From contig JAGGVT010000181.1 in NCBI GenBank assembly GCA_021157815.1, positions 1 to 45,425 on the forward strand: 45,425 nt of DNA, in the 5' to 3' direction. The DNA is from a bacterium. Lineage in GTDB: Bacteria > JAJVIF01 > JAGGVT01. The notes under the pieces are model-generated. The model ran no database searches and was not told the origin of the DNA. It worked only from the letters and a program-made list of their open reading frames with translations. Position 1 is the first letter of the stretch. Each line of letters starts with the position of its first letter. Positions 1-33,914 of this stretch are shown here, piece after piece. The position numbers and the translations under genes were made by a program.

Positions 1-131
1 GGGGCTGTTGAAAAAGGGCTGAATGTAGGGGGTAGGTCTCTGTGCCTACCCTAAATATTGGCATAAATACAGGGCAACCACGGAGAGTTGCCCCTACGGT
101 CTGGGATATAATGGGCTTTTTCAACAGCCCC
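1..131 (+). repeat. Family A element, copy 1 (131-bp MITE-like)
   Basis: Terminal inverted repeats are GGGGCTGTTGAAAAA at the left and TTTTTCAACAGCCCC at the right. The interior has two hairpins, GGTAGG/CCTACC and GGGCAAC/GTTGCCC. Other copies lie at 4080-4210, 15572-15702 and 27742-27872, all exactly 131 bp. The right flank is CGAAAGCGGGAATCC, half of the hairpin that also flanks copies 2 and 3. The left flank is outside the window. There is no coding capacity, so movement would need a transposase elsewhere. Confidence 0.85.
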
Positions 132-329
132 GAAAGCGGGAATCCATTTTAAAGTTCCCTTTCTCTGCCAGAGAGGATAAAGACAAAGAATTACTTCATA
201 TTAAATACTAGTTAACATTTGCATCAGAAGAAAATTGGATTCCCGCTTTCGCGGGAATGACGCGCTGTTTGGCCTGACGCGCTTTTTGGCCTGACAGGTT
301 GTTCGGAATAACAGGTTGTTCGGAATAAC
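132..329. repeat. H element remainder plus four 17-bp units
   Basis: Positions 132-261 are the rest of a hairpin-ended element (family H); its right end is an intact palindrome, ATTCCCGCTTTCGCGGGAAT. Positions 262-329 hold four consecutive 17-bp units. On the minus strand two read GTTATTCCGAACAACCT, followed by GTCAGGCCAAAAAGCGC and GTCAGGCCAAACAGCGC. They run directly into GTCATTCCCGCGAAAGC of H, which is itself a 17-mer. Confidence 0.7.
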
Positions 330-336
330 AGGTTGC

Positions 337-367
337 TTGCATTTCCGACAGGCTCTTAAACCCTCTG
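337..367 (-). repeat. Family D end fragment
   Basis: TTTCCGACAGGCTCTTAAACCCTCTGC nearly matches the right end of the D element at 31841-31872 (TTTCCGGCAGGCTCTTTAACCCTCTGC). It stops six bases before the stop codon of the glycosyltransferase gene to its right. No second end is visible, so this is a solo end or a decayed copy. Confidence 0.5.
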
Positions 368-372
368 CTATT

Positions 373-1491
373 CTAAATCTCACCACTTCCGTGAATATTA
401 GAATTTTTCTCCTGCCAGCATTTATCCACAAATTCCTTTATCTGCTTTCTGAATACGCTGACATCGAATTTACGCGCGTGTTCGATTAATCCAGCCTTGT
501 CAAACAACATTGAATCAAAACGATTGACCGCATCGTTGAGAGATTCCGGTGTCTGTTCACTGAAGAAAGTTCCGGTTTTATTTTCAACAACAGTCTCAAG
601 CGCGCCGCCTGCGCCGTAGGCGATAACCGGAGTCCCGGCTGACATCGCCTCGATTGGAGTCAAACCGAAATCCTCGAAACTGGTGAAAACAAGCGCTTTC
701 GCCTGGCCGTAAACTCTCGGAAGATCATCCTCAGGCACGAATCCAAGAAACTCAATATTCGGTTTCGCTATCGATTTTAGTTTATCCTCATCGGGCCCAA
801 TACCAAGAACCTTCAGCGGCAGGCCATTTTGATTAAACGCATCAATTGCGAGATCAACTCTTTTATACGGGACAAACCGATGGGCAATAAGGTAGTAATC
901 CCGCTTTGCGCCATCATAAGCGAATTTGTCAACATCAACCGGCGGATAAATCACAACGTCACCCTTGCGGTTATATGTGCGTTTAAGGCGGCGATCAACC
1001 TCATGGCTTATTGGAATGAAGTAATCGACCTGCGAATTCGACTCAAGATCGAATTTCCTCAACGGGCCAATCATCATGTCGAACAGAATTCGCTTCACAC
1101 CTGAAAGGCTCGCGCGATAGACACCATGAAGTTCCCAGATATATCGCATGGGCGTATAGATATATGAAATGTGAATGGCGCCATCCGGCCTTCGAATACC
1201 CTTTGCGCAGCAGTGGTTTGAGGAGAGGATGACATCAAATCCGCTTAAATCAAAAGAGCGAAATGCTTTCGGCATGAAGGGAAGATAGTTGCGATATTTC
1301 TCTTTCGAGTTGTGCCATGACTGCAGGAATGAGGTTCGAACACGCTCAGGCGGGAAGATGTCGCCAAAACGCTGTTTATCGTAAACGGATGTAAAAATCG
1401 GCGCATCGGGGAACATGTCGGCAAACTCCATGACACACCTTTCAGCGCCGCCAAATCCGGTAAGCCATTCATGCACGATTGCGAGTTTCAT
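373..1491 (-). CDS. GT4-family glycosyltransferase
   Basis: Predicted cytoplasmic GT-B glycosyltransferase (GT4 family, 372 residues) that would transfer a sugar from a nucleotide-sugar donor to a growing surface polysaccharide or lipid-linked glycan. The N-terminus MKLAIVHEWLTGFGGAER carries the glycine-rich acceptor-domain loop. The C-terminal half has the donor-site pattern FGLTPIEAMSAGTPVIAYG with the EX7E-type glutamates usual in GT4 enzymes. YIYTPMRYIWELHG in the middle resembles the mannosyltransferase-like subgroup, but the sugar specificity cannot be read from sequence. It starts at ATG, 6 bp after the stop of the neighbouring glycosyltransferase, so the two are almost certainly co-transcribed. 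Confidence 0.85.
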   Translation of the reverse strand: MKLAIVHEWLTGFGGAERCVMEFADMFPDAPIFTSVYDKQRFGDIFPPERVRTSFLQSWHNSKEKYRNYLPFMPKAFRSFDLSGFDVILSSNHCCAKGIRRPDGAIHISYIYTPMRYIWELHGVYRASLSGVKRILFDMMIGPLRKFDLESNSQVDYFIPISHEVDRRLKRTYNRKGDVVIYPPVDVDKFAYDGAKRDYYLIAHRFVPYKRVDLAIDAFNQNGLPLKVLGIGPDEDKLKSIAKPNIEFLGFVPEDDLPRVYGQAKALVFTSFEDFGLTPIEAMSAGTPVIAYGAGGALETVVENKTGTFFSEQTPESLNDAVNRFDSMLFDKAGLIEHARKFDVSVFRKQIKEFVDKCWQEKNSNIHGSGEI

Positions 1492-1497
1492 TATCGA

Positions 1498-2847
1498 TTA
1501 TTTCTCATTCTTATCCGCATCTTTATGTTTATCCTCATGCTCTTTTATCATCGCCTCAACTTCATCATCATAGAGATATTCAGCCAATATCTCGCTTTCA
1601 GTGAATATATGTTCATCATACGACAATCCAATCGGCCTGTCCTCAAGCAGATCGATATAAACCTGCTCAATCCTTTTTGCCAGATCATTCCAGTCGTAGA
1701 GCTTTTTATATCCCTTCGATTTTTCGCGCGCGCGTTCATACAGCGCATCATTGGCGATTATCGCCTCCAGCTTTTCCGCAAGTTGCTCAACATCATTCGG
1801 ATCAACAAGTGTAACATGCTTTTTAATCCTTTCGTTGACATCACCAACTGTCGATACAGTTGTTATCATGGGAGCGTCAAAATGCCCGAATGTAATCATG
1901 CTGGAACGCCGGTCGGAATAGCCATCCGTAAACGGAAAAACCCCGACACGCGCGATTGTGAAAATCTCCGCGGCTTCCTCGATGGGAAGAAATCCCTTGA
2001 ATTTGACTTTGTCCTTAAGCGCTCCTTGATTCGAGATGTAATTGATAAACCGATCGTATGATTTCCTGTGGGGATCAAAAGCGCCGACATGCCACAATTC
2101 GCATTTATACCCGCTTATGCAGATTTTCTCAAACGCTTTCAGCAGAACCTCGAAACCCTTGTGCGGATGAAGGAATCCGTAGTTTACTATTACGCCATCC
2201 TCCGGAACATCCCATTTGCGCCTGAGATTTTCTTTGTTGTCTTCAAATTTGATTTTCAAACTGTCGTAATTCTCTGGAAGCACAGGTCCAATCGGTATTA
2301 CCCGCGATTGCTTTTTGCTCAGCGTGCTGAATCGAAAGCGCAGGGCGTCCCTTTCCTGAATCGATGGAAACAGAATCATTGATACCTCGCTGAGAAGCGG
2401 CATTATTGCCGCTTTCCTCAGCATGCGCGCATGGCTGAATTCATGAATTGTGATTATGTACGGCGATGCCAGTTTCCGTGCTTTAAGCTGCATGCCCAGA
2501 AGGCTCGGAGCGAAACCTTTTCCGAATCCCTTTGATGGATACTGCAGGTGAATTATGTCCGGTTCAATCTTGAGAATCCGCTTCAGAAGCGAACCGCCGT
2601 AAAAAACCGACCAGCCTCTCATCACAGGATGAATTTTGATGTTCTCATGCGGTGAGTTTTCATCCGCATCCTTTGACGTGATAACATCGACCTGATGCCC
2701 CAAACCCGCAAGGCGTTTCGACAGTTCGTACGTGTTATCCCCCACGCCGCACCGCATCGGTGGAAACGAACCCACTATCTGCACTATTTTTAATTTTTCC
2801 GTGATTTCCTCTCTAACCTCATTCCAAATTTGTTGAGTGTAAAGCAC
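1498..2847 (-). CDS. GT4-family glycosyltransferase, start uncertain
   Basis: Second GT-B/GT4 glycosyltransferase, about 449 residues. The fold begins at KIVQIVGSFPPMRCGVGDN, the typical first strand and glycine loop; GFLHPHKGFEVLLKAFEKI marks the start of the donor domain. A charged tail (EHEDKHKDADKNEK) follows the usual end of the family. No ATG precedes the fold. I chose GTG at 2847 because CAGGAGG lies upstream (2862-2867), although the 14-base spacing is long. Alternatives are TTG at 2922 and a GTG inside KIVQ. It probably works with the downstream glycosyltransferase on the same glycan. Confidence 0.8.
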   Translation of the reverse strand: MLYTQQIWNEVREEITEKLKIVQIVGSFPPMRCGVGDNTYELSKRLAGLGHQVDVITSKDADENSPHENIKIHPVMRGWSVFYGGSLLKRILKIEPDIIHLQYPSKGFGKGFAPSLLGMQLKARKLASPYIITIHEFSHARMLRKAAIMPLLSEVSMILFPSIQERDALRFRFSTLSKKQSRVIPIGPVLPENYDSLKIKFEDNKENLRRKWDVPEDGVIVNYGFLHPHKGFEVLLKAFEKICISGYKCELWHVGAFDPHRKSYDRFINYISNQGALKDKVKFKGFLPIEEAAEIFTIARVGVFPFTDGYSDRRSSMITFGHFDAPMITTVSTVGDVNERIKKHVTLVDPNDVEQLAEKLEAIIANDALYERAREKSKGYKKLYDWNDLAKRIEQVYIDLLEDRPIGLSYDEHIFTESEILAEYLYDDEVEAMIKEHEDKHKDADKNEK

Positions 2848-3033
2848 CGCAATTATAACAACCTCCTGCAGTATCGCGAAACAGGTTATAATATGCGTGA
2901 TGGAAAATCGAACGGATGACAATCGACTTAAACGCTATTTGCTGATTATATCCGGCGGCGCGCTGCCCCGATTTTACAAGCGCCCACGAACATGCGGACA
3001 TTTACATCCGACACCTCCTTTTGCCGAATCATT

Positions 3034-3154
3034 TAGTAAGTTAGTAAGTTAGAAGGTTAGTAAGTTAGAAGGTTAGTAAGTTAGCAGGTTAGTAAGTTAG
3101 TAAGTTAGCAGGTTAGTAAGTTAGTAAGTTAGCAGGTTAGTAAGTTGGTAAGTT
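3034..3154. repeat. 8-bp tandem array K1 (GTTAGTAA / GTTAGCAG)
   Basis: About 15 near-identical 8-bp units of consensus GTTAGYAR in the divergent gap between the glycosyltransferase operon and the comEA-like gene. The period of 8 with TAG in each unit closes all three forward frames, so it is non-coding. A longer array of the same consensus lies at 45164-45393. Confidence 0.9.
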
Positions 3155-3160
3155 TATTCT

Positions 3161-3183
3161 GCTTTTACCTGGGAGCGCTGGAT
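3161..3183 (+). repeat. Solo end of family F
   Basis: CTTTTACCTGGGAGCGCTGG matches the outer arm of the complete F element at 8285-8476. No partner arm is seen nearby, so this is a decayed or truncated copy. Confidence 0.5.
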
Positions 3184-3278
3184 TCCAGATAGTAACTATT
3201 TACAGCATTTCCTCGACTGCTTTTGTGAGTCATCCATCTGATTACTCCCTATAAATGCAATGCTGAACAACGCCTGAT

Positions 3279-3887
3279 TTATATATATATTAAATCCTTG
3301 ATTTTAGCGTATGTGCCCTCAGCGATTCCCTTTACGCTCATGATTTCAGTCTTCTTTTTAAACCCGCTGTTCCTGGTTCGATAATCGATAATATCCTGCG
3401 CGCGAATATCTCCGACTCCCGGAAGCGCCGTCAGTTCCTCTTTTGATGCAGTATTCAGGTTGATTGGAAACCGCACTTCCCTTGATGTTGAGCGTGCAGC
3501 CTTGATGCTTTCATCATTGGTAATCAACGGTGAGTCTATCTTCTCGCCTTTTATGGGAACATACAGTTTCTGGCCATCGAAAATGTTCTCGGCAAGATTC
3601 AGGAAACTCGTATCGGCGTTTTCGATTGTGCCGCCTGCTGTTTTGATCGCGTCTGTAACTCGGCTTTCATACGGCAGTTCAATCAGTCCGGGATTCGCAA
3701 CAGCGCCGGCGACATGCACCAGTATTGTTTCAGGTGTTTTATCCGCATCCAAATCTGCCGCCAGCGCACTGTCATTTTTGGAAATGTTATACGCAATCAT
3801 GTCCATTGCCACAGTGGCAATCCATACAACGACAAGGATTGAAAACACGGTGATGCCGAGAATTTCTGATCTGCTCAGATTTTTCAA
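3279..3887 (-). CDS. comEA: ComEA-like SLBB plus helix-hairpin-helix protein
   Basis: Membrane-anchored DNA-binding protein of the ComEA type (202 residues), which in competent bacteria holds incoming double-stranded DNA at the outer face of the inner membrane. One N-terminal transmembrane helix (about residues 10-32) is followed by an SLBB-like segment (ILVHVAGAVANPGLIELP, about 54-72). The C-terminal tandem helix-hairpin-helix has INLNTASKEELTALPGVG and MSVKGIAEGTYAKIKDL. The start is TTG with GGAG eight bases upstream. No comEC or pilus assembly gene is adjacent, though a pseudopilin lies at 28-29 kb. Confidence 0.85.
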   Translation of the reverse strand: MKNLSRSEILGITVFSILVVVWIATVAMDMIAYNISKNDSALAADLDADKTPETILVHVAGAVANPGLIELPYESRVTDAIKTAGGTIENADTSFLNLAENIFDGQKLYVPIKGEKIDSPLITNDESIKAARSTSREVRFPINLNTASKEELTALPGVGDIRAQDIIDYRTRNSGFKKKTEIMSVKGIAEGTYAKIKDLIYI

Positions 3888-3962
3888 TTTACAACTCCGC
3901 TGATTTACAACAGTTGGATTAATTTTACATGATTGCCCTGAATATGTCTATTGGAACACAAC

Positions 3963-4064
3963 GCCAGGTCAAATAACGCGTTAGGTCGAATAACCTGTTA
4001 TGCCGAACAACTCGCAAGAATGAATTACCCACTAGGTCGAATTACCCATCAAGTATTATAACCC
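3963..4064 (+). repeat. Array J1: six diverse 17-bp units
   Basis: Six back-to-back 17-bp units: GCCAGGTCAAATAACGC, GTTAGGTCGAATAACCT, GTTATGCCGAACAACTC, GCAAGAATGAATTACCC, ACTAGGTCGAATTACCC and ATCAAGTATTATAACCC. They run without a gap into GTCATTCCCGCGAAAG of the H hairpin. The period is exact although the units differ considerably. Confidence 0.7.
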
Positions 4065-4356
4065 GTCATTCCCGCGAAAGGGACTGTTGAAAAACCTAAT
4101 TATGTAGGGGCAGGTCTCTGTGCCTGCCTTTAGGTTTGCTGTAAATACAGGGCAGCCACAGAGGGCTGCCCCTACGATTCGGGATAAAACAAGCTTTTTC
4201 AACATGCCCCGAAAGCGGGAATCCAATTTTCTTTTTTTTCAAATATAAGACAATGCATGTATGGTTGAGCTGATTAAAACTTTAACCAGGAAGGGAAAGA
4301 CCTGTACGACGATCTGGTTTAAGAAAAAAATGGATTCCCGCTTTCGCGGGAATGAC
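4065..4356 (+). repeat. H element interrupted by family A copy 2 (4080-4210)
   Basis: The outer ends are GTCATTCCCGCGAAAG (4065-4080) and CTTTCGCGGGAATGAC. The right hairpin is intact. The left hairpin, ATTCCCGC-GAAA-GCGGGAAT when empty, is split in its loop by a 131-bp A element with CGAAAG at both junctions. This A copy has GGCAGG/CCTGCC and GGGCAGCC/GGCTGCCC stems, compensatory variants of the stems in copy 1. Confidence 0.75.
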
Positions 4357-4518
4357 GTAACCTTGTTTCGCGGTAATGACGGAATCTTTTTCCTTTTCCT
4401 GGCTTAGCATCCAATAAAATTATGATTAGATACGTTAAACGCCATGTTAGTTGAACATACATTTTGAATAATACCGAACCAAACTTGCGCAAAAACTCAT
4501 TTGGGTTACACTTGTCGC

Positions 4519-5307
4519 ATGATTTTAAAAAGGAACGCGATAAAAAAGCTGTTTCAGCGTTTTGCGATTATTCCTCCACTCGCGCTTCTAATCCTGCTAT
4601 TCTCAACCGCCGACGCTAACGCCGGCGAACGGTATGCAGTACTTATGCAGAATGTCGGTGTCGGACTTGTGAACCGTTTGGAGAAAGTGCTTCTTGAGGA
4701 TTATCATTTCCCCGCTGAAAATGTCTCTTATTACCGCTGCCTTGATGAGGACGGGAAAGAAATATCCGGCGCAATGCTGGCTGAATCAGTGTTGTCAAAA
4801 CTCGATGAGCTTTCCTGTGAATTACAACCAGGCGATAAACTCATTATTGCCTTTCTATGCCACATGAAAAGCGGATTCTGTGTGAATGCATCGCTGACAT
4901 ACAAGGAGCTGGAGGATGCGCTGGCAATTTTCGATGACGATGTCGATATTATTTTGTTCATGGAGGGCTGCCATTCCGCAGGCGCATTGAAGGTTGTCGA
5001 ATCGGCGGACGCGCTTATTACATCCGCGGAAACCGGAGAGATATGCTACGGCGGATTCATGCGTTTCTGGATAAACGCAATCGATCCTAAACATGAGGCA
5101 TATAAAAATGCCGATACTGACAACAATGGCTTTGTTACTGTCGGTGAGGCGTACGAGTACGCAAGAGATGAGAAGAAACTCGCTAAATGGTATCGTGATC
5201 TCGATGATAAAGTCTGGCCTTTCCCTGATTTTTACCCAACCCCGACCGCACTTTTTCAGGATGGCGGTGAGTCGCTGACTCTTTGTGAGAATTATTACAG
5301 GTTTTAA
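4519..5307 (+). CDS. Secreted caspase-like (clan CD) protein with EF-hand-like loop
   Basis: Probable exported cysteine-protease-like protein, 262 residues from the ATG at 4519 (a TTG at 4501 is a less likely start). A signal peptide with core IIPPLALLILLFSTADANA is followed by a caspase/C13-type fold. Strand LIIAFLCHMKSG contains the candidate catalytic His (about H115), and strand IILFMEGCHSAGAL the candidate catalytic Cys (about C151), matching the GHG and DxCHSG stations of clan CD peptidases. A calcium-loop-like segment DTDNNGFVTVGE (about 199-210) lies before the C-terminus. The usual GHG is changed to CHM, so activity is not assured. No obvious inhibitor or partner is adjacent. Confidence 0.65.
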   Translation: MILKRNAIKKLFQRFAIIPPLALLILLFSTADANAGERYAVLMQNVGVGLVNRLEKVLLEDYHFPAENVSYYRCLDEDGKEISGAMLAESVLSKLDELSCELQPGDKLIIAFLCHMKSGFCVNASLTYKELEDALAIFDDDVDIILFMEGCHSAGALKVVESADALITSAETGEICYGGFMRFWINAIDPKHEAYKNADTDNNGFVTVGEAYEYARDEKKLAKWYRDLDDKVWPFPDFYPTPTALFQDGGESLTLCENYYRF

Positions 5308-5320
5308 CAGAGCTATTTTC

Positions 5321-5617
5321 AGGATCGTTGCTTGCTGTACTCTGAAGTTGCCATTTCTAATGCGGCACATCGGGGCACAGCAAGGAAGATGTCTCAGAAT
5401 GTAAAATAATGCACGAAACATTGTCATTCTGAGCGCAGCGAAGAATCTATAAGCTGCTGTGTTGATGATTAAACCTGACAAGAATAATTCGCATTGTCGA
5501 GAATAGATCCTTCGCTTCGCTCAGGATGACAGAAAAAGACGGGTTCTGAGACAGCTTCCAAGCGGCGTTCCTACATATAATAGTTTATCCGCATAGCCAA
5601 GACTTTTTCAACAGCCC
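5321..5617 (-). repeat. A' element copy, split by a G element
   Basis: This reverse-orientation relative of the A' element at 33749-33914 aligns over GAAGTTGCCATTTCTAATGC and over the outer end TTTTTCAACAGCCCT. It is interrupted at 5385-5558 by a different element and lacks its left-hand terminus. Confidence 0.65.
5385..5558. repeat. Family G element 1 (174 bp) nested in A'
   Basis: The ends are GAAGATGTCTCAGAA and TTCTGAGACAGCTTC, with inner arms TGTCATTCTGAGCGCAGCGA and TTCGCTCAGGATGACA. A CAAG duplication flanks it (5381-5384 and 5559-5562). Removing the element and one CAAG restores a continuous match to the uninterrupted A' copy at 33.8 kb. Confidence 0.7.
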
Positions 5618-5663
5618 TGAGACACAGGCGCTACGCAAATATCCAATAACGGATTTTTAAAGT

Positions 5664-5692
5664 TTGCCAAGAGCCACCTCCGGTGTTATACT
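5664..5692 (+). promoter_or_regulatory. Predicted sigma70-type promoter for scpA operon
   Basis: TTGCCA (5664-5669) and TATACT (5687-5692) are separated by 17 bp, and the first gene of the scpA-scpB-dac operon begins 68 bp further on. Confidence 0.55.
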
Positions 5693-5759
5693 CTTTTACT
5701 TATAGTGTTTATCAGTGATTCAGGCGTATATTTGAGCGAATCTCTGAGCGTGGACAACA

Positions 5760-6515
5760 ATGAATATACAGAAGGCCAGTGAATATCAGATAGGCATCAA
5801 GGATGTTTTCGAGGGTCCTCTCGACCTTCTGATGCATCTTATCCGCGTGAATGAGATAGACATTTATGATATTCCCATAAGTTTCATTCTTGACAAATAT
5901 CTGAGTTACCTTAAAACGATTGAGAAGCTGGACATAAATATCTCAAGCGAATTTCTTCTGATGGTCGCTACTCTGCTGGAGATAAAATCCCGGATGCTGC
6001 TGCCGACCAGTTATCTGGATAATCTGGAAAGCGATGACGAGTGGCTGGCGTCACTGACCGACCCTCGCCATGAACTTGTCAGGGCGCTTGTTTTTAATGA
6101 TATTCACCGTCGAATAGAGGATGACCTTCGGGAACATGAGGAATCCCAAATGAGGGTTTTCCCGGCGGCGTGCCGTAATTTGGATATTGGCAACGATTCG
6201 GATGTCAGTTTCGACTTGGAGAAGATTGGCCTTTTTGACCTGTTGACCGCCTATCAGCAGATGCTTCTTCGTGAAAAACCGGAGACAATATATATTAAAA
6301 TGCCCACTGAATCGCTGGAGGCGACAATCGATGAATTAATCGCATGGCGCGGCGGCGGGGCAGGGAAATCAACATTTAGAGAGGCCGTTGGCGCGAATCT
6401 TTTTCCTGCAAAAGTGATAATTGTCTTTTTGGCGATACTTGAACTCGCGCGAATCGGCTATGTCGAAATTAAGCAGGATTCAAAAAAAAGCGAGATAAGA
6501 ATGTATTGGAAGTGA
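5760..6515 (+). CDS. scpA: Segregation and condensation protein ScpA
   Basis: Kleisin subunit of the SMC-ScpAB condensin complex that organises the nucleoid and supports chromosome segregation. It has 251 residues, the usual length. The N-terminal signature FEGPLDLLMHLIRVNEIDIY is clear, followed by DIPISFILDKYLSYL and LLMVATLLEIKSRMLLP, the SMC-neck-binding region. The C-terminal winged-helix part ends in VIIVFLAILELARIGYVEI. It is followed 3 bp later by scpB, the standard order. No smc gene is in the window. Confidence 0.95.
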   Translation: MNIQKASEYQIGIKDVFEGPLDLLMHLIRVNEIDIYDIPISFILDKYLSYLKTIEKLDINISSEFLLMVATLLEIKSRMLLPTSYLDNLESDDEWLASLTDPRHELVRALVFNDIHRRIEDDLREHEESQMRVFPAACRNLDIGNDSDVSFDLEKIGLFDLLTAYQQMLLREKPETIYIKMPTESLEATIDELIAWRGGGAGKSTFREAVGANLFPAKVIIVFLAILELARIGYVEIKQDSKKSEIRMYWK

Positions 6516-6518
6516 TTT

Positions 6519-7349
6519 ATGGTGTCAGATGAAATAAATAACACGACGGAAAATGCAGACAGCGATGAATTGAACAGCTTGAGCGAGTTGGAAACGATGT
6601 CGATGGATTTTGTTGACCAAAGGCTGGACAGCGTTGATTATGTCAGGAACCTTATTGAGGGAATTTTGTTGATGAGCTCTGAACCGCTTGAGATAAGTCG
6701 CATTGCGAAGTCACTTGGAATAAAAAAGGCTGTTGCGGAGAAAGCGTCTGAAATACTGGTTGAGGACTATCAAACCCGGGGAATACTAATTCAGGAAATC
6801 GGCGATGGTTTGCAGCTTGGGACAAATCCTGACATAGCTGAACACCTGGAGCGGTTTTTCCAGATTGAGCGCAGGCGTCGCGTTTCACGCGCGGGGCTTC
6901 AGACGCTGTCGATAATAGCGTACAACCAGCCGATTACTCGCGCGGAAGTGGAATCATTCCGAGGCGGGATTAATTCAGGCGGTGTGCTGCAATCGCTTTT
7001 GGAAAGAGACCTTGTGAAGATAGCAGGCCGGAAAGAAACGCCCGGAAATCCATATCTGTATAGTGTCAGCGATGCCTTCCTGAAATATTTCGGGCTTAAA
7101 ACCATAGAGGAATTGAAGGAAAAGCTCCCGGCAATTGAGGATAAAATCGCGAGCGATGGCGATATCGCACAATTGAAACTTAAAGACCTTGGTATCAGCC
7201 ATGGTGAAAAAGAGATGCCGCAGGATGATGATACTATTACGAATGATTTGCTCAATAGTCTGGTCAGTGAAGATGAGCTAAACACAGATATGCCGGAATC
7301 AATTGAAAACAATCCGGATGAGACTAAAAAAGGCAGCGATATTACATGA
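6519..7349 (+). CDS. scpB: Segregation and condensation protein ScpB
   Basis: ScpB partner of ScpA, a dimeric tandem winged-helix protein that binds the kleisin. It has 276 residues. LIEGILLMSSEPLEISRIAK starts the first winged helix, and LQTLSIIAYNQPITRAEVES plus DLVKIAGRKETPGNPYLYSV are hallmark ScpB segments of the second. Acidic extensions at both ends (about the first 40 and last 60 residues) make it longer than typical ScpB of about 190-200 residues. Its stop codon overlaps the ATG of the next gene (ATGA), indicating translational coupling. Confidence 0.95.
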   Translation: MVSDEINNTTENADSDELNSLSELETMSMDFVDQRLDSVDYVRNLIEGILLMSSEPLEISRIAKSLGIKKAVAEKASEILVEDYQTRGILIQEIGDGLQLGTNPDIAEHLERFFQIERRRRVSRAGLQTLSIIAYNQPITRAEVESFRGGINSGGVLQSLLERDLVKIAGRKETPGNPYLYSVSDAFLKYFGLKTIEELKEKLPAIEDKIASDGDIAQLKLKDLGISHGEKEMPQDDDTITNDLLNSLVSEDELNTDMPESIENNPDETKKGSDIT

Positions 7350-9320: not shown

Positions 9321-9350
9321 GGTTGGAGAATGGCATCATCACCTGGGTTG

Positions 9351-15400: not shown

Positions 15401-15416
15401 CCGGTGGAATAATTCC

Positions 15417-15556
15417 ATTAGGTCAAATTACCCATTAGGTCGAATTACCCGTCAGGTCGAATTAACCCGTAAGGTCGAATAAACCCGTTAGGTCAAATTA
15501 CCCGTCAGATCGAATAAACCCGTTAGGTCAAATTACCCGTAAGGTCGAATAAACCC
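15417..15556 (+). repeat. Array J2: eight 17/18-bp units
   Basis: Eight units alternate between 17 bp (GTTAGGTCAAATTACCC) and 18 bp (GTAAGGTCGAATAAACCC) and run directly into GTCATTCCCGCGAAAG. They begin 17 bp after the cdaR stop codon. Confidence 0.85.
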
Positions 15557-15571
15557 GTCATTCCCGCGAAA

Positions 15572-15702: not shown

Positions 15703-15749
15703 GAAAGCTGAAATGACAGAATCTTGTTTCGCTGAAGTGACAGAATCTT

Positions 15750-26839: not shown

Positions 26840-26840
26840 A

Positions 26841-27011
26841 AATAAGGTTATCGGGAGTTTACCGTTTGAAAATCCTTTTGTCTTTCCGGCAAGCTCAAAC
26901 CTGAGGGGCCAGCTCCTAATTGATTCCATAAGTACTCACGGAGGATATGAAAATGCCGTCCCACTGGAATCGACAGCGATTCCAACTGCTTGCGAGTTAT
27001 TTACAGACTGA
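26841..27011 (+). pseudogene. Possible 3' remnant of a lost gene
   Basis: An open stretch of 56 codons reads VIGSLPFENPFVFPASS, then LRGQLLIDSISTHGGY and ENAVPLESTAIPTACELFTD, then stops. The composition looks protein-like, but there is no start codon or ribosome site. With B copy 3 removed the frame continues upstream through QNNSVSLNK to a TGA near 26580. I do not recognise the family. Confidence 0.35.
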
Positions 27012-27097
27012 ATAAACAGGCATTGCACTTTTTTTTTTAACTCTTATGTGTTACCTTAATTTATTATGATATCTTTCGTTTTAGGGAGTGATAACAA

Positions 27098-27565
27098 ATG
27101 GCACAAAAAATAATTGACGGCGTTAAACTAAAACCCATGAATGTAATCCCTGACGAACGCGGACGGCTCATGGAAATCCTGCGCTCGGATGATGATATTT
27201 TTGAGAAGTTCGGGCAAATCTACATGACTACAGCATACCCCGGCGTGGTTAAAGGATGGCATTATCATAAACTTCAGGCTGATCACTTTGTTGTGCTGCG
27301 CGGCATGATGAAAGTCGCGCTTTATGATGATCGCGAAAACAGCCCTACTAAAGGTGAAGTGAATGTTTTCTTCCTCGGCGAGCACAATATGCAAATGGTA
27401 AAAATCCCGAAACTTGTCTGGCATGGATTCAAGTGCATCTCAGAGTATGAAGCAGTCGTGATAAACATACCAACCGAAATTTACAACTATGAAAAACCGG
27501 ATGAATACCGTGAGAAACCTCACGGCGGCAAAATACCCTACGACTGGTCCCGCAAGGACGGTTAG
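27098..27565 (+). CDS. RmlC-like cupin (dTDP-sugar 3,5-epimerase family)
   Basis: 155-residue cupin of the dTDP-4-dehydrorhamnose 3,5-epimerase family, which prepares nucleotide sugars for surface polysaccharides. PDERGRLMEILRSDD and VVKGWHYHKLQADHFVVLRG match the family, with the catalytic-type His in WHYH and the second strand ADHFVVL. IPKLVWHGFKCISEYEAVVI is the usual C-terminal barrel motif. At 155 residues it is shorter than RmlC (about 180), so it may be an isomerase of another sugar. ATG start with AGGGAG upstream; single gene with its own terminator. Confidence 0.8.
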   Translation: MAQKIIDGVKLKPMNVIPDERGRLMEILRSDDDIFEKFGQIYMTTAYPGVVKGWHYHKLQADHFVVLRGMMKVALYDDRENSPTKGEVNVFFLGEHNMQMVKIPKLVWHGFKCISEYEAVVINIPTEIYNYEKPDEYREKPHGGKIPYDWSRKDG

Positions 27566-27591
27566 TGTTATTTTCAAAAACGCCAGCAAAA

Positions 27592-27620
27592 ACCCGGGTA
27601 TCTGACCCGGGTGTTTTTTT
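27592..27620 (+). terminator. Rho-independent terminator
   Basis: ACCCGGGT-ATCTG-ACCCGGGT forms a perfect 8-bp stem followed by seven T, 27 bp after the RmlC-like gene. Confidence 0.92.
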
Positions 27621-27741
27621 GTTTATCCAATAGCAGATTATATGTAAAAGGCAAACAGCTGGTAGCCCGGTTTCTCATGAGGCTGTCTTAGAACTAATTG
27701 AAATGTGCAAATATCCAGTAATTTTGTTCTGCGGGCATCCT

Positions 27742-27872
27742 GGGGCTGTTGAAAAAGGGCTGAATGTAGGAGGTGGGTCTCTGTGCCTACCCTAAATATT
27801 GGCATAAATACAGGGCAACCACGAAGAGTTGCCCCTACGGTCTGGGATATAATAGGCTTTTTCAACAGCCCC
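27742..27872 (+). repeat. Family A element, copy 4 (131 bp)
   Basis: It is inserted within GCGGGC-ATCCT-GCCTGC, an imperfect hairpin, and CATCCTG is present on both sides. A half copy of the family E hairpin (GGTAGCCCGGTTTCTCAT) lies at 27660-27677. No gene is seen in 27621-28031. Confidence 0.85.
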
Positions 27873-28031
27873 ATCCTGCCTGCATTTGTTAAAATCTTAA
27901 GTTACATAAAAAGATGCATGCAAGATGCATGCAGCACAACTACTTCACAACCATTCCACAACTACAACTCAACCAAAACCGGGCTGCAATAAAATGAACC
28001 TTTTCAGAAGTCTCTCAATAATAAATCTTCG

Positions 28032-29060
28032 CTAACTCCTGTCTATCACCAGCTGATCATCATACTTCGATGTCTTGATTATCAACGCGCCTTTCACAAA
28101 CTGGCGGACAGAATACTCATACGTTCCCGGCGTTGGTGGTGTTGTGGGATTGCCATCCCCCATCGGCGGTGGAAAATTTGGGAAATTGGGATTATTAAGA
28201 AGTTGGTTATACGGGCTGTTCTTCAATGTATTTTCATTACCGTAACCGATAAGCCAGTATGCGGTCGCGTACTCACCGGACGGGTCGCTCAGTCCAAGGG
28301 GAATATAGGCAAATTCTCCCACCGGGTAATTCCATTTATTCACCGGGCTATCTGTGTAATAATCCCACATATGGGCATAAATCGAATAACGCCACATCGC
28401 GTTATTGCTGTTTGGATACCCCGGAGCCAGTCCGATTCTTGATGTTGAATCTGCTAAAATAGGCAGCAGTGAGAACGTGTTGATGCTTTTGTGATATGTT
28501 CCAAGCGTATATGCCACATTAATCATGCCCTGTCCGGGCGCTTTCAGCGGGTTGTCCGGATATGGCACAAGCAAACTCTCACCGAAAAGCGCGTCAGGCG
28601 GCTTCATCCTGACAGCGAAACTTGTATATCTCTTCGGAAGAACATCCCTGAAAGGTGAACGCGGTGGTTTAATGTCGGAAAGAAAATCATCCTGATTCGT
28701 TGTACTGACCGCTTCAATAGTGCTCGTTATCTCGCCTGTTTCCGTGTTCTCGATTTTATCAACGGGACCGTTGTTGCCGCCGATTATTCGATTTCCTTTC
28801 AATCGTCCGTTATGCGGGTACGGCGGATTGACAGGCCACTCGGTAAATCCGGGATACAGCCCCTGGTGTTTCTGGGCAAATGTCTTGAGTGCGGTATCAA
28901 TTACATTAATGTTGGTCTTGACCTCAGCGACTTTCGCGTTGTCCTTCGCCTTATTGAAAGTCGTCAAAGCGATTATCGTTAGTATGGAAATCACAGCCAG
29001 AACAACAACCATCTCCGTTACTGTGAAACCGTCCTGAGAATTCTTCGTGAATATTTTCAT
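28032..29060 (-). CDS. Long type IV pilin-like (pseudopilin) protein
   Basis: Secreted or pilus-forming protein of 342 residues with a class III signal: a basic leader, then the prepilin peptidase site G/FTVTEM with Glu at +5, and the hydrophobic helix VVVLAVISILTIIALTTF. The C-terminal domain of about 290 residues is unusually long and rich in Pro, Asn and Tyr, as in pseudopilins of uncultivated and PVC-type bacteria. No pilus assembly genes are nearby, so it may be a stand-alone fibre or secretion pseudopilin. ATG start. Confidence 0.85.
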   Translation of the reverse strand: MKIFTKNSQDGFTVTEMVVVLAVISILTIIALTTFNKAKDNAKVAEVKTNINVIDTALKTFAQKHQGLYPGFTEWPVNPPYPHNGRLKGNRIIGGNNGPVDKIENTETGEITSTIEAVSTTNQDDFLSDIKPPRSPFRDVLPKRYTSFAVRMKPPDALFGESLLVPYPDNPLKAPGQGMINVAYTLGTYHKSINTFSLLPILADSTSRIGLAPGYPNSNNAMWRYSIYAHMWDYYTDSPVNKWNYPVGEFAYIPLGLSDPSGEYATAYWLIGYGNENTLKNSPYNQLLNNPNFPNFPPPMGDGNPTTPPTPGTYEYSVRQFVKGALIIKTSKYDDQLVIDRS

Positions 29061-29495
29061 CCTGATTCACGCTCCAGAAAATAAATCAATGAATTGAATA
29101 AATTGACAAAATAATCTCATTTATATTATAGAACTTGCGCACCAAATTTACACACACTTTGGGGATTATGCGAGATTAGATAAAGAAACAATAATATATA
29201 CTACTATTTAAAATAAACCACATGATACGCCTTCTGTCAAGATAAGCCCCAAAAAAGCCCTGACAAAAGCGTGATACGTCAATGTATATTAGGGCATATA
29301 CGGATATATGAAGCGATCTGGGCTGTCACCACGGCTGGCACTCTGAATACACACTGAATAAAGCCAGCCCCACAGTCGATTAAATATACGAATGAATCAG
29401 CGCATCTCAGGCTCCCCGCATTGAACACATGCCGGAGTAACTTTGTCCAAAGAGATGGATAATTCCGGCAAAAGAGTCTGAAATTCATTTGTTAA
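29061..29495. other. Intergenic region without recognised gene
   Basis: AT-rich between divergent genes. TTGACA (29099-29104) is followed 17-18 bp later by TATTATAG, a possible rightward promoter, but it lies almost 400 bp before the next start. No repeat family of this window is present. Confidence 0.4.
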
Positions 29496-31499
29496 TTGGA
29501 GCTATTACAGGTTAATATTTCCTTTAGACAGGATATTTTAAAAAGACACCGGATTCAGGATTTTCGTTTGGATGAACTGATTAAAAAATACCCGTGGGTT
29601 CTAACTCTAAAGAACACGGTTATCGGACTTGCGATAATCGCGGGACTGGCATATTTCATCACGATTTCCGCAAGTGAGGCTAAAAAGGATCTCAAGGATA
29701 TTTTCGCCGAGGAAAAATCGGATGTAACGCTTGTTGAGGATGTGCTGGCAACCGGATACGATTTCGAGGAGGTTATCGAGGATGGTGTAAAGAAGCAATA
29801 TTTCGGAAAAGTTTGGGAATTGGAAAGCCGCATTGTCGAGGAGGGTTCGGACGGCTCAAAGAGTGTCGCGAAGGAAATTAAAGTCCTTCGGATTTACAAA
29901 AAAGGCGAACTCAATCTCATCGGAGTTGGCGATGCTGCTGAATACAACAAAAGCCGCGATGAACTCAAGATGTACGGCAATGTCCATGTTGAAAGCGAGG
30001 ACGGCAGCACAATCCTCAATACCGAAACTCTAATCTGGTCGGATGCAAAGGACAATAAACGGATGAGCTGTCCTGAACCGGTTGAACTATGGGTGGATGA
30101 CAACCATATCCTTGCGGACATGATGTTCAGCGACAAGGATTTGGAACGAATCGATTTCCTCGGGCGTGTCTCAATGTTCAACATTGGAATCGAGCGTGAG
30201 AATTTCATGACACGCGAAGGCTGGATTGATTTCGAGGATGTCAAAACCGAAGGCGAACGCGACCCGGATGATGTCATCAATGTCGAATGTGAATATATCC
30301 ATTATGACAAGATCGAAAAATACATGGAGTGTTATCCGTATGTCCCACACCGTGTAAAAAAACGCCACCGAACATATCTTAAACGCGAGGATTTCAAACC
30401 GGCTGTACCGTTTAAATACCAGCAACAGTCGGCTGAAAAAGAAGAAGATGACCTGATTCCTGAGAGCATTCGTACAACCGGCCTTGAGGGATTTGAAGAT
30501 ATTTTCAAAAAGGATGATGAAAAAAAATCCGATGAAGAAAAAAATATTGAAGAAAAGGAATCATCGGAAAATAAGGAAAAAGAAATAGAACTGCCGGAGA
30601 GAGAGCTTAGAGCATCCCCGGTACCCGAACCTTTCCCCGGCAAATTCCCCGGCAGGCTGGCTCGCCAGGTTTACTGCTGGAAACAGGATAAAAAGATATT
30701 CTCCAACCGCCTTGATATCAACCTGAAACAAAAGATGCTCAAGCCGCGATTCGATGTCTATATCTGGGCTTTTAAAATGGAAAAGGAAGTCAAAAAAAAG
30801 CACGATAAGAAAAATGAGGAACCATCCAAAACTGTAAAAGCGCTGGCAAAAGAGACAACGGAAATATTCGGCGACTTCATGAACGTTTACTGGAAAACGG
30901 ATTTCATCGACGCCTGGGGCGGAATTGAAATCCGCCAGAAGGAAAAATACTTCACTTCGGAAAATATGGTCTATTCCGATGAACTCGGAATCATGGAAGC
31001 TGACGGTGATGTTTTCATGGAGCAGCTCGATGGCGAATGGCTTGAACGCGAAGGCTTGCTTGAGGATATGACTGATGAGGACGCGAAGGAACACGCTAAA
31101 AAGCCAACTGAAATAACCTCGGACGCCATGATCTCTTACGATGATGAAGATTACGTTTATATGATTGGCAATGTGTATATCAAGCAGGAGGAGCAAAACA
31201 TTGTCTCGAATGAGGGTGAATTCTCCGACTCCAAGGACATAATGGTTTTCTGGGGCAATGTCAAATATCGAAACAAGGACGGCGAACGTCTCAATGCGGA
31301 CAAACTAACTCTCTACACGGAGGAAAATCGCTACATCGCCGAGGGAGCCGTGATTGCAAGAAGCCTTGTGCCTGAGGAATACGAGGATGATTTAAGAGAA
31401 ATGGAAGGCGAGGATGTCGAACCCTCCGAAGAAAACCCAGAGCAAAACGCAGATGAGGTTGAGAAAGAAACAAAAAGCGAGGGGGAATCAGGTGATTAA
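29496..31499 (+). CDS. LptC/OstA-like periplasmic protein
   Basis: Predicted bitopic protein of 667 residues (TTG at 29496; a TTG at 29568 with AGGA upstream is an alternative). One N-terminal transmembrane helix (NTVIGLAIIAGLAYFITISA) is followed by an LptC-like segment: LIGVGDAAEYNKSRDELKMY, GNVHVESEDGSTILNTETL and DDNHILADMMFSDKD. After a charged Glu/Lys linker (about 310-370) come OstA/LptA-type repeats (EADGDVFMEQL, YMIGNVYIKQEEQNIVSNEG, VFWGNVKYRNKDGERLNADK). This beta-jellyroll type carries lipopolysaccharide across the periplasm. It is much larger than LptC or LptA (about 190 residues each), as if both were joined. lptB is not in the window. Confidence 0.7.
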   Translation: MELLQVNISFRQDILKRHRIQDFRLDELIKKYPWVLTLKNTVIGLAIIAGLAYFITISASEAKKDLKDIFAEEKSDVTLVEDVLATGYDFEEVIEDGVKKQYFGKVWELESRIVEEGSDGSKSVAKEIKVLRIYKKGELNLIGVGDAAEYNKSRDELKMYGNVHVESEDGSTILNTETLIWSDAKDNKRMSCPEPVELWVDDNHILADMMFSDKDLERIDFLGRVSMFNIGIERENFMTREGWIDFEDVKTEGERDPDDVINVECEYIHYDKIEKYMECYPYVPHRVKKRHRTYLKREDFKPAVPFKYQQQSAEKEEDDLIPESIRTTGLEGFEDIFKKDDEKKSDEEKNIEEKESSENKEKEIELPERELRASPVPEPFPGKFPGRLARQVYCWKQDKKIFSNRLDINLKQKMLKPRFDVYIWAFKMEKEVKKKHDKKNEEPSKTVKALAKETTEIFGDFMNVYWKTDFIDAWGGIEIRQKEKYFTSENMVYSDELGIMEADGDVFMEQLDGEWLEREGLLEDMTDEDAKEHAKKPTEITSDAMISYDDEDYVYMIGNVYIKQEEQNIVSNEGEFSDSKDIMVFWGNVKYRNKDGERLNADKLTLYTEENRYIAEGAVIARSLVPEEYEDDLREMEGEDVEPSEENPEQNADEVEKETKSEGESGD

Positions 31500-31576
31500 T
31501 TTTCCAAATAAACAAATAACAGAGGGTTTTAACCCTCTGCTTTTCACTCGCTCAATAATCCTGCTCATCACTCGCT

Positions 31577-31862
31577 TTAGAGCCTGTCGGAAAAGCATGT
31601 TGATTTTCAAACATACTATTCTTCTGATAGCCCTCGGGTGCCGCCCACATATCACGTCTTTTTGTGATTTGTGGGTGAAACGTGCAAATTCGCAACATTT
31701 CACCCATAAAGCCCGGAGGGCTGTATGGGCGGCACCCGATTCCCCTTCGCAAGTATATAGATCAGATATATTGTTTACAAATGTAAAAAAATCTCCCCCC
31801 GCTCGCGGGGGGACCAAGGGGGGAATGAGATATAAAAAACCCTTTTCCGGCAGGCTCTTTAA
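31577..31862 (+). repeat. Family D element 1 containing C element 1
   Basis: The inverted ends are AGAGCCTGTCGGAAAAG and CTTTTCCGGCAGGCTCTTT. Inside are C element 1 (31635-31738) and a segment shared with D element 2 (CTTCGCAAGTATATAGATCA, CTCCCCCCGCTCGCGGGGGG). An 18-bp direct repeat TTTAACCCTCTGCTTTTC (31528-31545 and 31858-31875) brackets it with a 330-bp offset, which is a multiple of three. It leaves the reading frame of the second OstA-like gene open. Confidence 0.7.
31635..31738 (+). repeat. Family C element 1
   Basis: The outer stem CGGGTGCCGCCCA pairs with TGGGCGGCACCCG. Inside are three hairpins: ATCACG..TGTGAT, TGGGTGAAA..TTTCACCCA, and GCCC-GGA-GGGC. The other copies change both sides of these stems together. 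Confidence 0.85.
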
Positions 31863-33720
31863 CCCTCTGCTTTTCCATTACGTAATCCTCATTGCGATAT
31901 TCCTGCTTGCATTTTCAATTTGCGCTTTTGCAGATGATGAATCATCGGGCGATTTACAAACACAACCAAACCGGGGCTCATCAATAGTTCCACAAAAACG
32001 AGAAAAGGAAGAAAAGAAACAGGAAAAGGAGATTATTGAGGAAGTGCCATCTGAGGAAGAAAAATCAGAAAACGAAGAGGAAGAGAAAAGCGAGATTGAT
32101 AAACCGAAAGACGATTCGGATTTATACGGCACTTACTCCGATGGTATGACCCATGGTCCACCGCCTTTGGATCCAAATCAGCGCGACCTCGACCGCCTGT
32201 TCGAACAAACCAAACAAGAGGGCAGGGGCAGCCTTCAGGATGTGCTTCAGCAACATGACGGCACTAATTTCCAGAAACCGGAATCATTTCCGCCAACCGA
32301 TATGATGGGCCCATTCCCTCCAGACGACGGCATCATGGGACCACCGCCACAAGACGATTTTGTTGGGCCTCCACCACTGCCTGAAATAAATATCGAGGGC
32401 ATGGATAAATGGGACTTCATAGGGCCTCCACTGCCTGAGCCTGACCAGATTGAATCTGAATTTGTTGAGGAAGAGATTCCTCAAATCGAAATAGAATTCG
32501 AGGACACGCTCCCACCCGAGGACAGAAAATTTGTCGATTTGAGCGCGGATAAAATCACACGCGACAAACTCAATCACACTGTGTTTCTTGAGGGAAACTC
32601 AAAAGTTGTTTATGAAGATGTAATTATCCTCAGCGAATTCTGCGAGTTTAACGACGATGAAGAGTGGGGTAAATTCTGGGGCCCGACAGGTGTGCTGTCT
32701 GAAAGCGAGGACGGCATCTCAAAGTCTGAACGCCTCGAAGCGTATTTCAAGGAAAAGAAAGCGTACCTGCATGAGAATGTTGAGGTATTCGTTTACGGCC
32801 GCGAATATGAAAACGAGCTGGAAGAGGACGCTCCCAAAAAGGACAGAGTAAAACGCGCGCTGGGGCAGGACGACACAACCATTTACTGCGACGAGGTCAT
32901 TTACAACTGGGGAGAAAAAACATTCTTCGCATGGGTGGAGGATTCTGAAATCGTGAAACTCATTCAGGATGGCCGTTACGCTCACGCTCTTGCCATGTAT
33001 CATGAAAGGGAAACTGAACTGACGGTGCTTGAAGGCAAAGTCGAATTGTGGCAGAAGGATGGTGACTGGCTTTTTGACAGGGATGTTGTTACCGACAAGG
33101 AGGACAATTGGGCTAACGCGCTCTTGCGTCCTGAAACGACAGTCACATGCGACCTGCTTGAATCCCACGGTGAGGAGGAAACAACCCTCCTTGACGGCAA
33201 TGTGCTGGCCGTTCAGAAAAATAAAAGAAGCAGCGCTGACAAGGTCGTTAATGACGACAAGGAAAAACTGCTGACCGCTGAGGGAAATGTCAAATATCAC
33301 CATGACAACGGCGACTGGCTTGTGGAATGGGATATCGTTGACCCGGAAGAGGAAAGCGAGGAAACAATGGAGGATTTGAAAAAAGCTGCTGATGGCCAGG
33401 CTGACAAGTTCATTTTATGGACTGAAGATGAGGATTTCGAGGCTGAGGGCAATGTGAAAGCCTGGCAGGAACATCAGGAGGCCTCGATGGATAAAGCCGT
33501 TTACACAAAGGAATTCGACAGGCTTCAAGTTTTCGGCAACGTTAAATTCGCGCGTGAATCCAAACATGACCTTCTTAGCGACGAGGGAATCCTCTGGCTG
33601 ACAACCAAAGTTTATGAGGCTTTCGGAAATGTCAAATCAAAAGGAAAAATCGATGTGGAAGAGGAGATGGAAAAAATAAAAGAGGAAAAGGAAGACAAGC
33701 AAGAGGAGAAATCGGAATAG
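31825..33720 (+). CDS. OstA/LptA-repeat periplasmic protein with repeat-derived 5' end
   Basis: Exported protein of 631 residues from the ATG at 31825. The signal peptide has n-region MRYKKPFSGRLFN, core YVILIAIFLLAFSI and cleavage after CAFA. After an acidic, Pro-rich linker (GPPPQDDFVGPPPLPE) come at least six OstA repeats marked by LEGNSKVVYED, HENVEVFVYG, LEGKVELWQKDGDW, LDGNVLAVQ, AEGNVKYHHDNGDW and VFGNVKFA. These form the periplasmic beta-taco fold for lipopolysaccharide transport. The ancestral start was probably GTG at 31492, with GAGGGGG upstream, overlapping the previous gene stop. A D element now separates that start from the signal peptide but keeps the frame open. AAGG five bases before the new ATG could serve as ribosome site. 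Confidence 0.7.
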   Translation: MRYKKPFSGRLFNPLLFHYVILIAIFLLAFSICAFADDESSGDLQTQPNRGSSIVPQKREKEEKKQEKEIIEEVPSEEEKSENEEEEKSEIDKPKDDSDLYGTYSDGMTHGPPPLDPNQRDLDRLFEQTKQEGRGSLQDVLQQHDGTNFQKPESFPPTDMMGPFPPDDGIMGPPPQDDFVGPPPLPEINIEGMDKWDFIGPPLPEPDQIESEFVEEEIPQIEIEFEDTLPPEDRKFVDLSADKITRDKLNHTVFLEGNSKVVYEDVIILSEFCEFNDDEEWGKFWGPTGVLSESEDGISKSERLEAYFKEKKAYLHENVEVFVYGREYENELEEDAPKKDRVKRALGQDDTTIYCDEVIYNWGEKTFFAWVEDSEIVKLIQDGRYAHALAMYHERETELTVLEGKVELWQKDGDWLFDRDVVTDKEDNWANALLRPETTVTCDLLESHGEEETTLLDGNVLAVQKNKRSSADKVVNDDKEKLLTAEGNVKYHHDNGDWLVEWDIVDPEEESEETMEDLKKAADGQADKFILWTEDEDFEAEGNVKAWQEHQEASMDKAVYTKEFDRLQVFGNVKFARESKHDLLSDEGILWLTTKVYEAFGNVKSKGKIDVEEEMEKIKEEKEDKQEEKSE

Positions 33721-33748
33721 CGCTATCATGAAATAACACCATGCTTTA

Positions 33749-33914
33749 GGGGCTGTTGAAAAACACTTGGTTATACGGATAAACCATTATATGTAGGGGC
33801 GTTGCTTGTTGCACCCCGGCGTGCCGCATTAGAAATGGCAACTTCAGGGCGCAGCAAGCGGCGACCCTACGATGGGTTTGTTATTTTTATTTGTCGGGGT
33901 TTTTCAACAAGCCC
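33749..33914 (+). repeat. A' element (166 bp)
   Basis: It has the same outer ends as family A (GGGGCTGTTGAAAAA) but a different interior (GCCGCATTAGAAATGGCAAC). It splits the palindrome CACCATGC-TTTA-GCATGGTG in its loop. A related unsplit palindrome, GCCATGCTTTAGCGTGGTGC, is at 36741-36760. Confidence 0.8.

What the first reader, a model, noticed from the sequence alone, without database searches (positions are those of the whole stretch)
1..33914. 131-bp element family that inserts in the loops of palindromes
Four A copies are all exactly 131 bp. With A', the sites whose two flanks can be read are hairpins split at the loop: ATTCCCGC-GAAA-GCGGGAAT (4080, 15572), GCGGGC-ATCCT-GCCTGC (27742) and CACCATGC-TTTA-GCATGGTG (A', 33749). 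Loop bases, with or without closing pairs, are duplicated (CGAAAG, CATCCTG, CTTTAG). Empty versions of two targets are also here (238-257, 4333-4352, 36741-36760). Loop targeting of REP hairpins is known for IS1397-type elements. A non-autonomous element hitting three unrelated hairpins would imply recognition of shape rather than sequence.
Basis: partly seen in the sequence, partly recalled or inferred. Interest (0 to 1): 0.75.

Follow-up and report, generated by a model that had tools for sequence, protein, structure and literature searches.

The report
Tiny transposons that split DNA hairpins
A bacterium carries roughly a hundred copies of a 131-base parasitic DNA element that has landed, again and again, exactly in the middle of unrelated hairpin-forming sequences and copied the hairpin's tip, which suggests that its transposase reads the shape of DNA rather than its letters.

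Summary
The ends GGGGCTGTTGAAAAA occur 216 times in this 3.2-Mb draft genome (reversed-pattern control 0). I recovered 65 element-like pairs with both flanks. Of these, 41 have an exact 4-6 bp target duplication, centred exactly on a hairpin dyad in 36. Flank pairing of at least 6 of 8 bases is 83%, against 0.6% at random sites. About eight unrelated hairpins are hit. Duplication length follows stem spacing: 4 (GAAA, TTTA), 5 (ATCCT, TTAAA, TTCTA), 6 (GTAGCC, AGCCTT).

The elements are MITEs. Two decayed copies of their likely driver, an IS1182-family IS with the same ends, lie in the same genome. Hairpin targeting is already published for IS1182-family IS1272/TnSha1, but there the hairpin is deleted and nothing duplicated; loop duplication was only drawn as a model pathway (Wan 2017). 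New here: a large natural data set for loop duplication, with variable length, in MITEs; two autonomous relatives show the same pattern. Other relatives with near-identical ends do not target hairpins, so target choice probably belongs to the transposase. Verdict: new variant of a known kind. Strand transfer into extruded hairpins is likely but unproven.

The parts
1..131 (+). A element, 131 bp (starts at the contig end)
132..143 (+). GAAA duplicate + right half of hairpin H1 (GCGGGAAT)
239..258 (-). empty H1 hairpin ATTCCCGC-GAAA-GCGGGAAT, inverted partner of the occupied one (REP pair)
4068..4079 (+). left half of H1 with GAAA
4080..4210 (+). A element, 131 bp, diverged copy
4211..4222 (+). 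GAAA duplicate + right half of H1
4334..4353 (-). empty H1 hairpin
5604..5618 (-). lone element end (remnant, A'-like)
15560..15571 (+). left half of H1 with GAAA
15572..15702 (+). A element, 131 bp
15703..15714 (+). GAAA duplicate + mutated right half (GCTGAAAT)
27731..27741 (+). left half of hairpin H2 GCGGGC + ATCCT
27742..27872 (+). A element, 131 bp
27873..27883 (+). ATCCT duplicate + right half GCCTGC
33737..33748 (+). left half of hairpin H6 CACCATGC + TTTA
33749..33914 (+). A' element, 166 bp: same ends, different inside
33915..33926 (+). TTTA duplicate + right half GCATGGTG
33983..33997 (+). outer half of an H1 pair GTCATTCCCGC + GAAA
33998..34196 (+). family B element (ends GAGTCTGTCGGGAAA), 199 bp, also inside a split hairpin
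34197..34211 (+). TTTC + outer half GCGGGAATGAC
36740..36759 (+). empty H6-type hairpin CGCCATGC-TTTA-GCGTGGTG

Best explanation
[quoted passage not shown] The transposase joins the element's ends to the two strands at the apex of hairpin-forming palindromes. The stagger between the two joins spans the apical loop, or the loop plus one closing pair, so repair duplicates that 4, 5 or 6 bp. SHOWN: shared ends, exact centring on the dyad, variable duplication length that follows stem spacing, many unrelated hairpins, and decayed IS1182-type copies with the same ends. INFERRED: that this transposase moved the MITEs, and that the target is an extruded hairpin or cruciform (as in pathway c of Wan 2017) rather than a double-stranded palindrome. 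Copies whose flanks are the two outer halves of a hairpin without duplication are explained best by deletion between two elements sitting in the two members of an inverted REP pair.
For: 216 ends, control 0. 41 pairs with an exact 4-6 bp TSD (24, 14 and 3 of 4, 5 and 6 bp); in 36 the dyad offset is 0; flank pairing of at least 6 of 8 is 83% against 0.6% of 4000 random sites; for each TSD length the pairing peaks only at that spacing (5.67, 4.29 and 5.33 of 6; other spacings 0.9-3.0). Unrelated hairpins fold as DNA with z from -2.9 to -7.8, one weak at -0.9. Same-end IS with broken IS1182 transposase at G000:C90:4771 and remnant at C56:2238. Two autonomous-size relatives duplicate a 5-bp hairpin tip: GCAATCGATC-CAGCG-GATCGATTGC (L209) and GAAAACAGTC-CGGGG-GACTGTTTTC (L233). 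IS1182-family IS1272/TnSha1 target hairpins without a common sequence (PMC4923244, PMC5678879). Outer-half flanks occur about 8 times and inner-half flanks never, and empty H1 sites occur as facing pairs 60-130 bp apart.
Against: No intact transposase with these ends was found (assembly 90.9% complete), and TIR identity alone links MITE and driver. Most targets come from two repetitive hairpin families (H1, H2); H4-H7 have one to three copies each. Most relatives with near-identical ends insert with a 5-bp duplication into one non-hairpin site in IS256-type genes, and Syntrophaceae MITEs with these ends are not in hairpins. TSD equals the DNA-folding loop only for H1 and H6; for the others it is loop plus one closing pair, so a 5+/-1 stagger centred on a double-stranded dyad fits as well as hairpin extrusion.
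Confidence: 0.8

Rival explanations
1. Sequence-specific targeting of REP repeats: the transposase recognises particular REP sequences (as proposed for IS1397, ISRm22 and others), and the loop position follows because the recognised sequence is a palindrome.
For: Most sites are two repeat families, H1 and H2. Known REP-targeting IS hit one REP kind at a fixed point, ISRm22 at the palindromy axis with 6-bp repeats (PMC1525189).
Against: At least eight hairpins without common stem or loop sequence are hit by elements with the same ends, with duplications of 4, 5 and 6 bp. Three different closing pairs flank the duplication (C-G, T-A, A-T).
Confidence: 0.12
2. Dyad recognition in double-stranded DNA: a symmetric transposase dimer prefers inverted-repeat symmetry and makes a 5+/-1 bp stagger centred on the dyad, without hairpin extrusion.
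For: Even dyads give 4 or 6, odd dyads 5; the relatives' usual stagger is 5. In most hairpin kinds and in the two hairpin-hitting relatives the duplication includes one possible closing pair of the folded loop.
Against: Stems share no sequence, so protein contacts would have to read symmetry without sequence, which is easier to explain by structure. TnSha1/IS1272 break hairpins in the stem, as expected for structure recognition (PMC4923244).
Confidence: 0.3
3. The flanking half-palindromes are part of the element (a longer composite repeat), so no targeting is involved.
For: H1 halves flank many copies.
Against: Identical 131-bp bodies sit in different hairpins, empty hairpins exist (44 H1 sites with at most 1 mismatch; 239-258 and 4334-4353 in the window), and flanks carry 4-6 bp direct repeats of differing sequence.
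Confidence: 0.02
4. Assembly chimeras or gene conversion between repeats create the pattern.
For: Draft assembly with many contigs ending in the element. About ten recovered pairs have flanks from two different hairpins or decayed flanks (e.g. L008, L035, L082).
Against: Chimeras would mix flanks; 38 of 65 pairs have matching halves and identical duplications.
Confidence: 0.03

Closest known systems
IS1272 / TnSha1 (IS1182 family), Staphylococcus (PMC4923244, PMC5678879)
   Same: IS1182 family; targets hairpins with no common primary sequence; often intergenic
   Different: There the hairpin is partly or wholly deleted and nothing is duplicated; here the apical 4-6 bp is duplicated and the stems are kept. 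There an IS or composite transposon, here MITEs in about a hundred copies.
Alphaproteobacterial IS1182 elements (Sinorhizobium, Bradyrhizobium and others; loci L134-L141, L171-L213)
   Same: Ends GGGGCTGTTGAAGAA; transposase about 48-50% identical to the decayed own copy
   Different: Constant 5-bp duplication at one conserved site inside IS256-type transposase genes, not in a hairpin
IS1182 elements L209 (Hyphomonas sp. BRH_c22) and L233 (uncultured Rhodobacteraceae)
   Same: Same ends; 5-bp duplication exactly at the tip of a 10-bp perfect stem
   Different: Autonomous size (1436 and 1506 bp), single copies examined, only 5 bp
REP-targeting IS: IS1397, ISKpn1, ISPsy8 (IS3), ISRm22 (IS4), ISPpu9/10, IS621 (IS110) (PMC1525189)
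   Same: Insertion inside palindromic repeats, ISRm22 at the palindromy axis with 6-bp repeats and with hybrid copies
   Different: Other transposase families; each targets one REP sequence kind

Membership tests
MITE | short, no coding capacity, terminal inverted repeats, target duplication, many copies | tested here: met
   131 bp, 15-bp inverted ends, 4-6 bp duplications, 216 ends genome-wide
MITE | ends shared with an autonomous element of the same genome | tested here: met
   C90:4771 copy begins GGGGCTGTTGAAAAA and ends TTTCAACAGCCCC; its transposase is broken
IS1182 family | transposase best matches the IS1182 model (NF033551) | tested here: met
   Both fragments of the C90 copy score best with NF033551 (113 and 51 bits)
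IS1182 family | curated score cut-off of the IS1182 model (270 bits) | tested here: inconclusive
   Fragments of a gene with an internal deletion cannot be expected to reach the cut-off
IS1182 family | terminal repeats of confirmed IS1182 members | tested here: met
   Annotated IS1182 transposases in Sinorhizobium lie between GGGGCTGTTGAAGAA ends
IS1272-type hairpin replacement | hairpin tip or whole hairpin deleted, no target duplication | tested here: not met
   41 pairs carry an exact 4-6 bp duplication with the stems kept; only about 8 have complementary flanks without duplication, explainable by recombination
IS1397-type REP-specific IS (IS3 family) | IS3-type transposase; one REP sequence as target | tested here: not met
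   Likely driver is IS1182-type; at least eight unrelated hairpins
Hairpin-extrusion (cruciform) targeting | dependence on extruded structure in vivo or in vitro | not testable with these tools
   Needs biochemical or supercoiling assays

The most novel reading that the evidence does not exclude
An IS1182-type transposase whose target is DNA shape: strand transfer occurs on both sides of the apex of extruded hairpins of any sequence, so the target duplication has no fixed length but is set by the hairpin tip (4, 5 or 6 bp). This is the loop-duplication pathway that was drawn, but not observed, for IS1272.
Probability: 0.45. Interest if true: 0.72.

Novelty: new variant of a known kind. Interest (0 to 1): 0.58.

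Why it matters
Most transposases have a fixed stagger and a sequence or composition preference. A natural set of dozens of insertions into unrelated hairpins, with duplication length tracking the hairpin apex, makes structure-directed transposition by the IS1182 family testable in detail. It also joins two opposite-looking outcomes, hairpin deletion in IS1272 and loop duplication here, within one family. For genome biology it shows a MITE colonising REP hairpins so heavily that about 30 H1-type hairpins were found occupied against 44 found empty.

Tried and rejected
(2) The intact IS1182/IS5-type transposase at C155:6730-7743 was considered as driver and rejected: its ends are GGTACCGTTGCAAAA. 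(3) No copies in 19 other genomes searched as relatives apart from tiny internal matches in one, and no transposase in the three other genomes of the phylum, so orthologous empty sites could not be compared. (4) Inversion between copies was considered for outer-half flanks and set aside because the reciprocal inner-half product never appears. (5) A tree of relatives was built, but several rows were wrong or broken reading frames (L209, L233, L195, L182, L210); it is not used beyond noting a Hydrogenedentota copy (L207) near the own fragment, and that copy sits between GGGGC..GCCCC without duplication, too short a stem to count. (6) Searches for papers describing loop duplication by IS1182 members found only the IS1272 papers and general REP papers; subscription literature is not covered.

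Full report
OBSERVATION. The window is contig 103 of a 3.2-Mb, 221-contig draft genome from a phylum with only four genomes held. The window holds four 131-bp A copies, one 166-bp A' copy and a lone end. Genome-wide the end GGGGCTGTTGAAAAA (up to 1 mismatch) occurs 103 + 113 times, and the reversed control 0 times, i.e. on the order of a hundred elements.

TARGET ANATOMY. From fetched stretches I collected 65 end pairs with both flanks (a few are spurious joins of neighbouring ends or nested copies). 41 have an exact direct repeat of 4 (24), 5 (14) or 6 (3) bp at the two element ends. After removing element and one repeat, the repeat lies on the dyad of the best hairpin within +/-15 bases in 36 of 41. 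The window copy at 4080 (L103) is another canonical case, missed there because its right end is one base longer than the match. In the 8 bases on each side of the repeat, pairing of 6 or more is seen in 83% of sites, against 0.6% of 4000 random positions in the same DNA; the means are 6.8 and 2.0.

UNRELATED HAIRPINS. Targets include H1 ATTCCCGC-GAAA-GCGGGAAT; H2 GTGSTGCGGGC-ATCYT-GCCTGCASCAC; H3 GCGCTGGT-TTCTA-ACCGGC and GCGCTGGC-ATCTT-GCCGGC; H4 GGAGCGCCGCA-GTAGCC-TGCGGCGCTCC; H5 GGAACGCGGAC-AGCCTT-GTCCGCGTTCC; H6 CACCATGC-TTTA-GCATGGTG; H7 CGTAGGGTGGAT-TTAAA-ATCTACCCTACG; and probably H8 CGTAGCGCTG..CAGCGCTACG. H1 and H2 are repetitive and account for most sites. Duplication length is constant within a hairpin kind and follows stem spacing between kinds: for repeats of n bp, pairing of the flanks peaks only at spacing n. 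As single-stranded DNA the hairpins fold with z-scores from -2.9 to -7.8, except one H3 version at -0.9. In that folding the loop is 4 nt for H1 and H6, equal to the duplication. It is 3 nt (H2, H3, H7) or 4 nt (H4, H5) for the others, where the duplication is loop plus one closing pair. The careful statement is therefore 'duplication centred on the dyad, spanning the apical loop or loop plus one pair'. L066 (T..A) and L087 (A..T) settle the boundary.

COPIES WITHOUT DUPLICATION. About eight copies (e.g. L010, L013, L063, L072, L089) have perfectly or nearly complementary flanks and no repeat. Both flanks are always the outer half of the hairpin (GTCATTCCCGCGAAA|..|TTTCGCGGGAATGAC), never the inner half. 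Empty H1 hairpins often occur as facing pairs 60-130 bp apart (C27, C30, C85, C123), so deletion between two elements in one pair gives exactly this product. IS1272-like replacement of the pair's inner part is an alternative. Around ten further pairs mix halves of different hairpins or are decayed; recombination or assembly joins explain them, as others proposed for ISRm22 (PMC1525189).

DRIVER. Pfam searches of the genome found a decayed IS at C90:4771 with the same ends and a transposase with an internal deletion and a broken frame, and a truncated sister at C56:2238. Both fragments of the C90 copy match the IS1182 model best. The closest complete relatives on plasmids, 48-50% identical, are annotated IS1182 family in Sinorhizobium, 1497 bp, with ends GGGGCTGTTGAAGAA. 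No intact driver with these ends was found. The link MITE-driver rests on the 15-bp ends.

SURVEY OF RELATIVES. A scan of GTDB genomes gave 80 loci. Alphaproteobacterial members mostly carry a 5-bp duplication in one conserved site of IS256-type transposase genes (ctggcagcgctgcCGCGTgcacttcatgcg), which is not a loop (that the interrupted gene is IS256-type is my reading of the flanking sequence, not a tool result). Two members duplicate a hairpin tip: L209, GCAATCGATC-CAGCG-GATCGATTGC, and L233, GAAAACAGTC-CGGGG-GACTGTTTTC. L199 has complementary flanks without duplication, as in IS1272. L231 splits the same AAAACAGTC..GACTGTTTT hairpin as L233 without a matching repeat. In a Syntrophaceae genome, MITEs with GGGGCTGTTGAAAAA ends are not in hairpins. 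So the ends do not dictate hairpin targeting, and the transposase probably does.

SECOND FAMILY. Elements with ends GAGNCTGTCGGGAAA (about 197 bp, 35 ends) show duplications of almost always 4 bp at the dyad of hairpins: H1 (L170, L253), H6 (L264) and loop-less palindromes such as GCATAGGG-TTTAAA-CCCTATGC (L279). Window copy: 33998-34196.

KNOWN BACKGROUND. Furi et al. 2016 (PMC4923244) and Wan et al. 2017 (PMC5678879) report that IS1272/TnSha1 of the IS1182 family insert into hairpins of no common sequence with deletion and no duplication, and they cite a review by Siguier et al. saying that some IS1182 members target palindromes. Wan's model lists a pathway in which both element ends attack the 5' side of the two loops of a cruciform and the loop is duplicated, but IS1272 did not show it. 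The present elements show what that pathway predicts, apart from the extra closing pair in several hairpins.

VERDICT. Real, strong and mostly explained: IS1182-type MITEs with hairpin-apex targeting. New relative to the papers found: loop duplication, variable duplication length, MITE form, large copy number. Not shown: the structural state of the target and the acting transposase.

Noticed in passing
window 33998-34196; L170, L253, L264, L279: A second MITE family (ends GAGNCTGTCGGGAAA, about 197 bp, 35 ends genome-wide) with mostly 4-bp duplications at hairpin dyads, sharing targets H1 and H6 with the A family.
   Followed up: partly
window 2985-3210 and 45125-45425: Tandem repeats with an 8-bp period at both places, mutually similar.
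   Followed up: no
window 15413-15570: 17/18-bp tandem repeat (ACCCGTTAGGTCGAATAA type) running directly into an H1 hairpin; similar units at 3976-4079.
   Followed up: no
own genome, L060:2187-2376, L093:1501-1666, L001:1501-1631: The same ends enclose different inner hairpin-rich cargos (131, 166, 190 bp), which look like captured REP pairs; a possible route by which such MITEs arise.
   Followed up: no
L134-L141, L171-L213: Alphaproteobacterial IS1182 relatives almost all sit in one conserved site that reads as an IS256-type transposase gene: an IS that seems to specialise in interrupting other ISs.
   Followed up: partly
L281, L297, L311-L319 (Syntrophaceae bacterium fen_1166): MITEs of about 124-143 bp with ends GGGGCTGTTGAAAAA / TTTTTGAACAGCCCC not inserted in hairpins and without a clear duplication at these ends.
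   Followed up: partly
window 239-258, 4334-4353, 132-143: H1 (ATTCCCGCGAAAGCGGGAAT) resembles, from memory, the neisserial dRS3 repeat ATTCCC-N8-GGGAAT.
   Followed up: no
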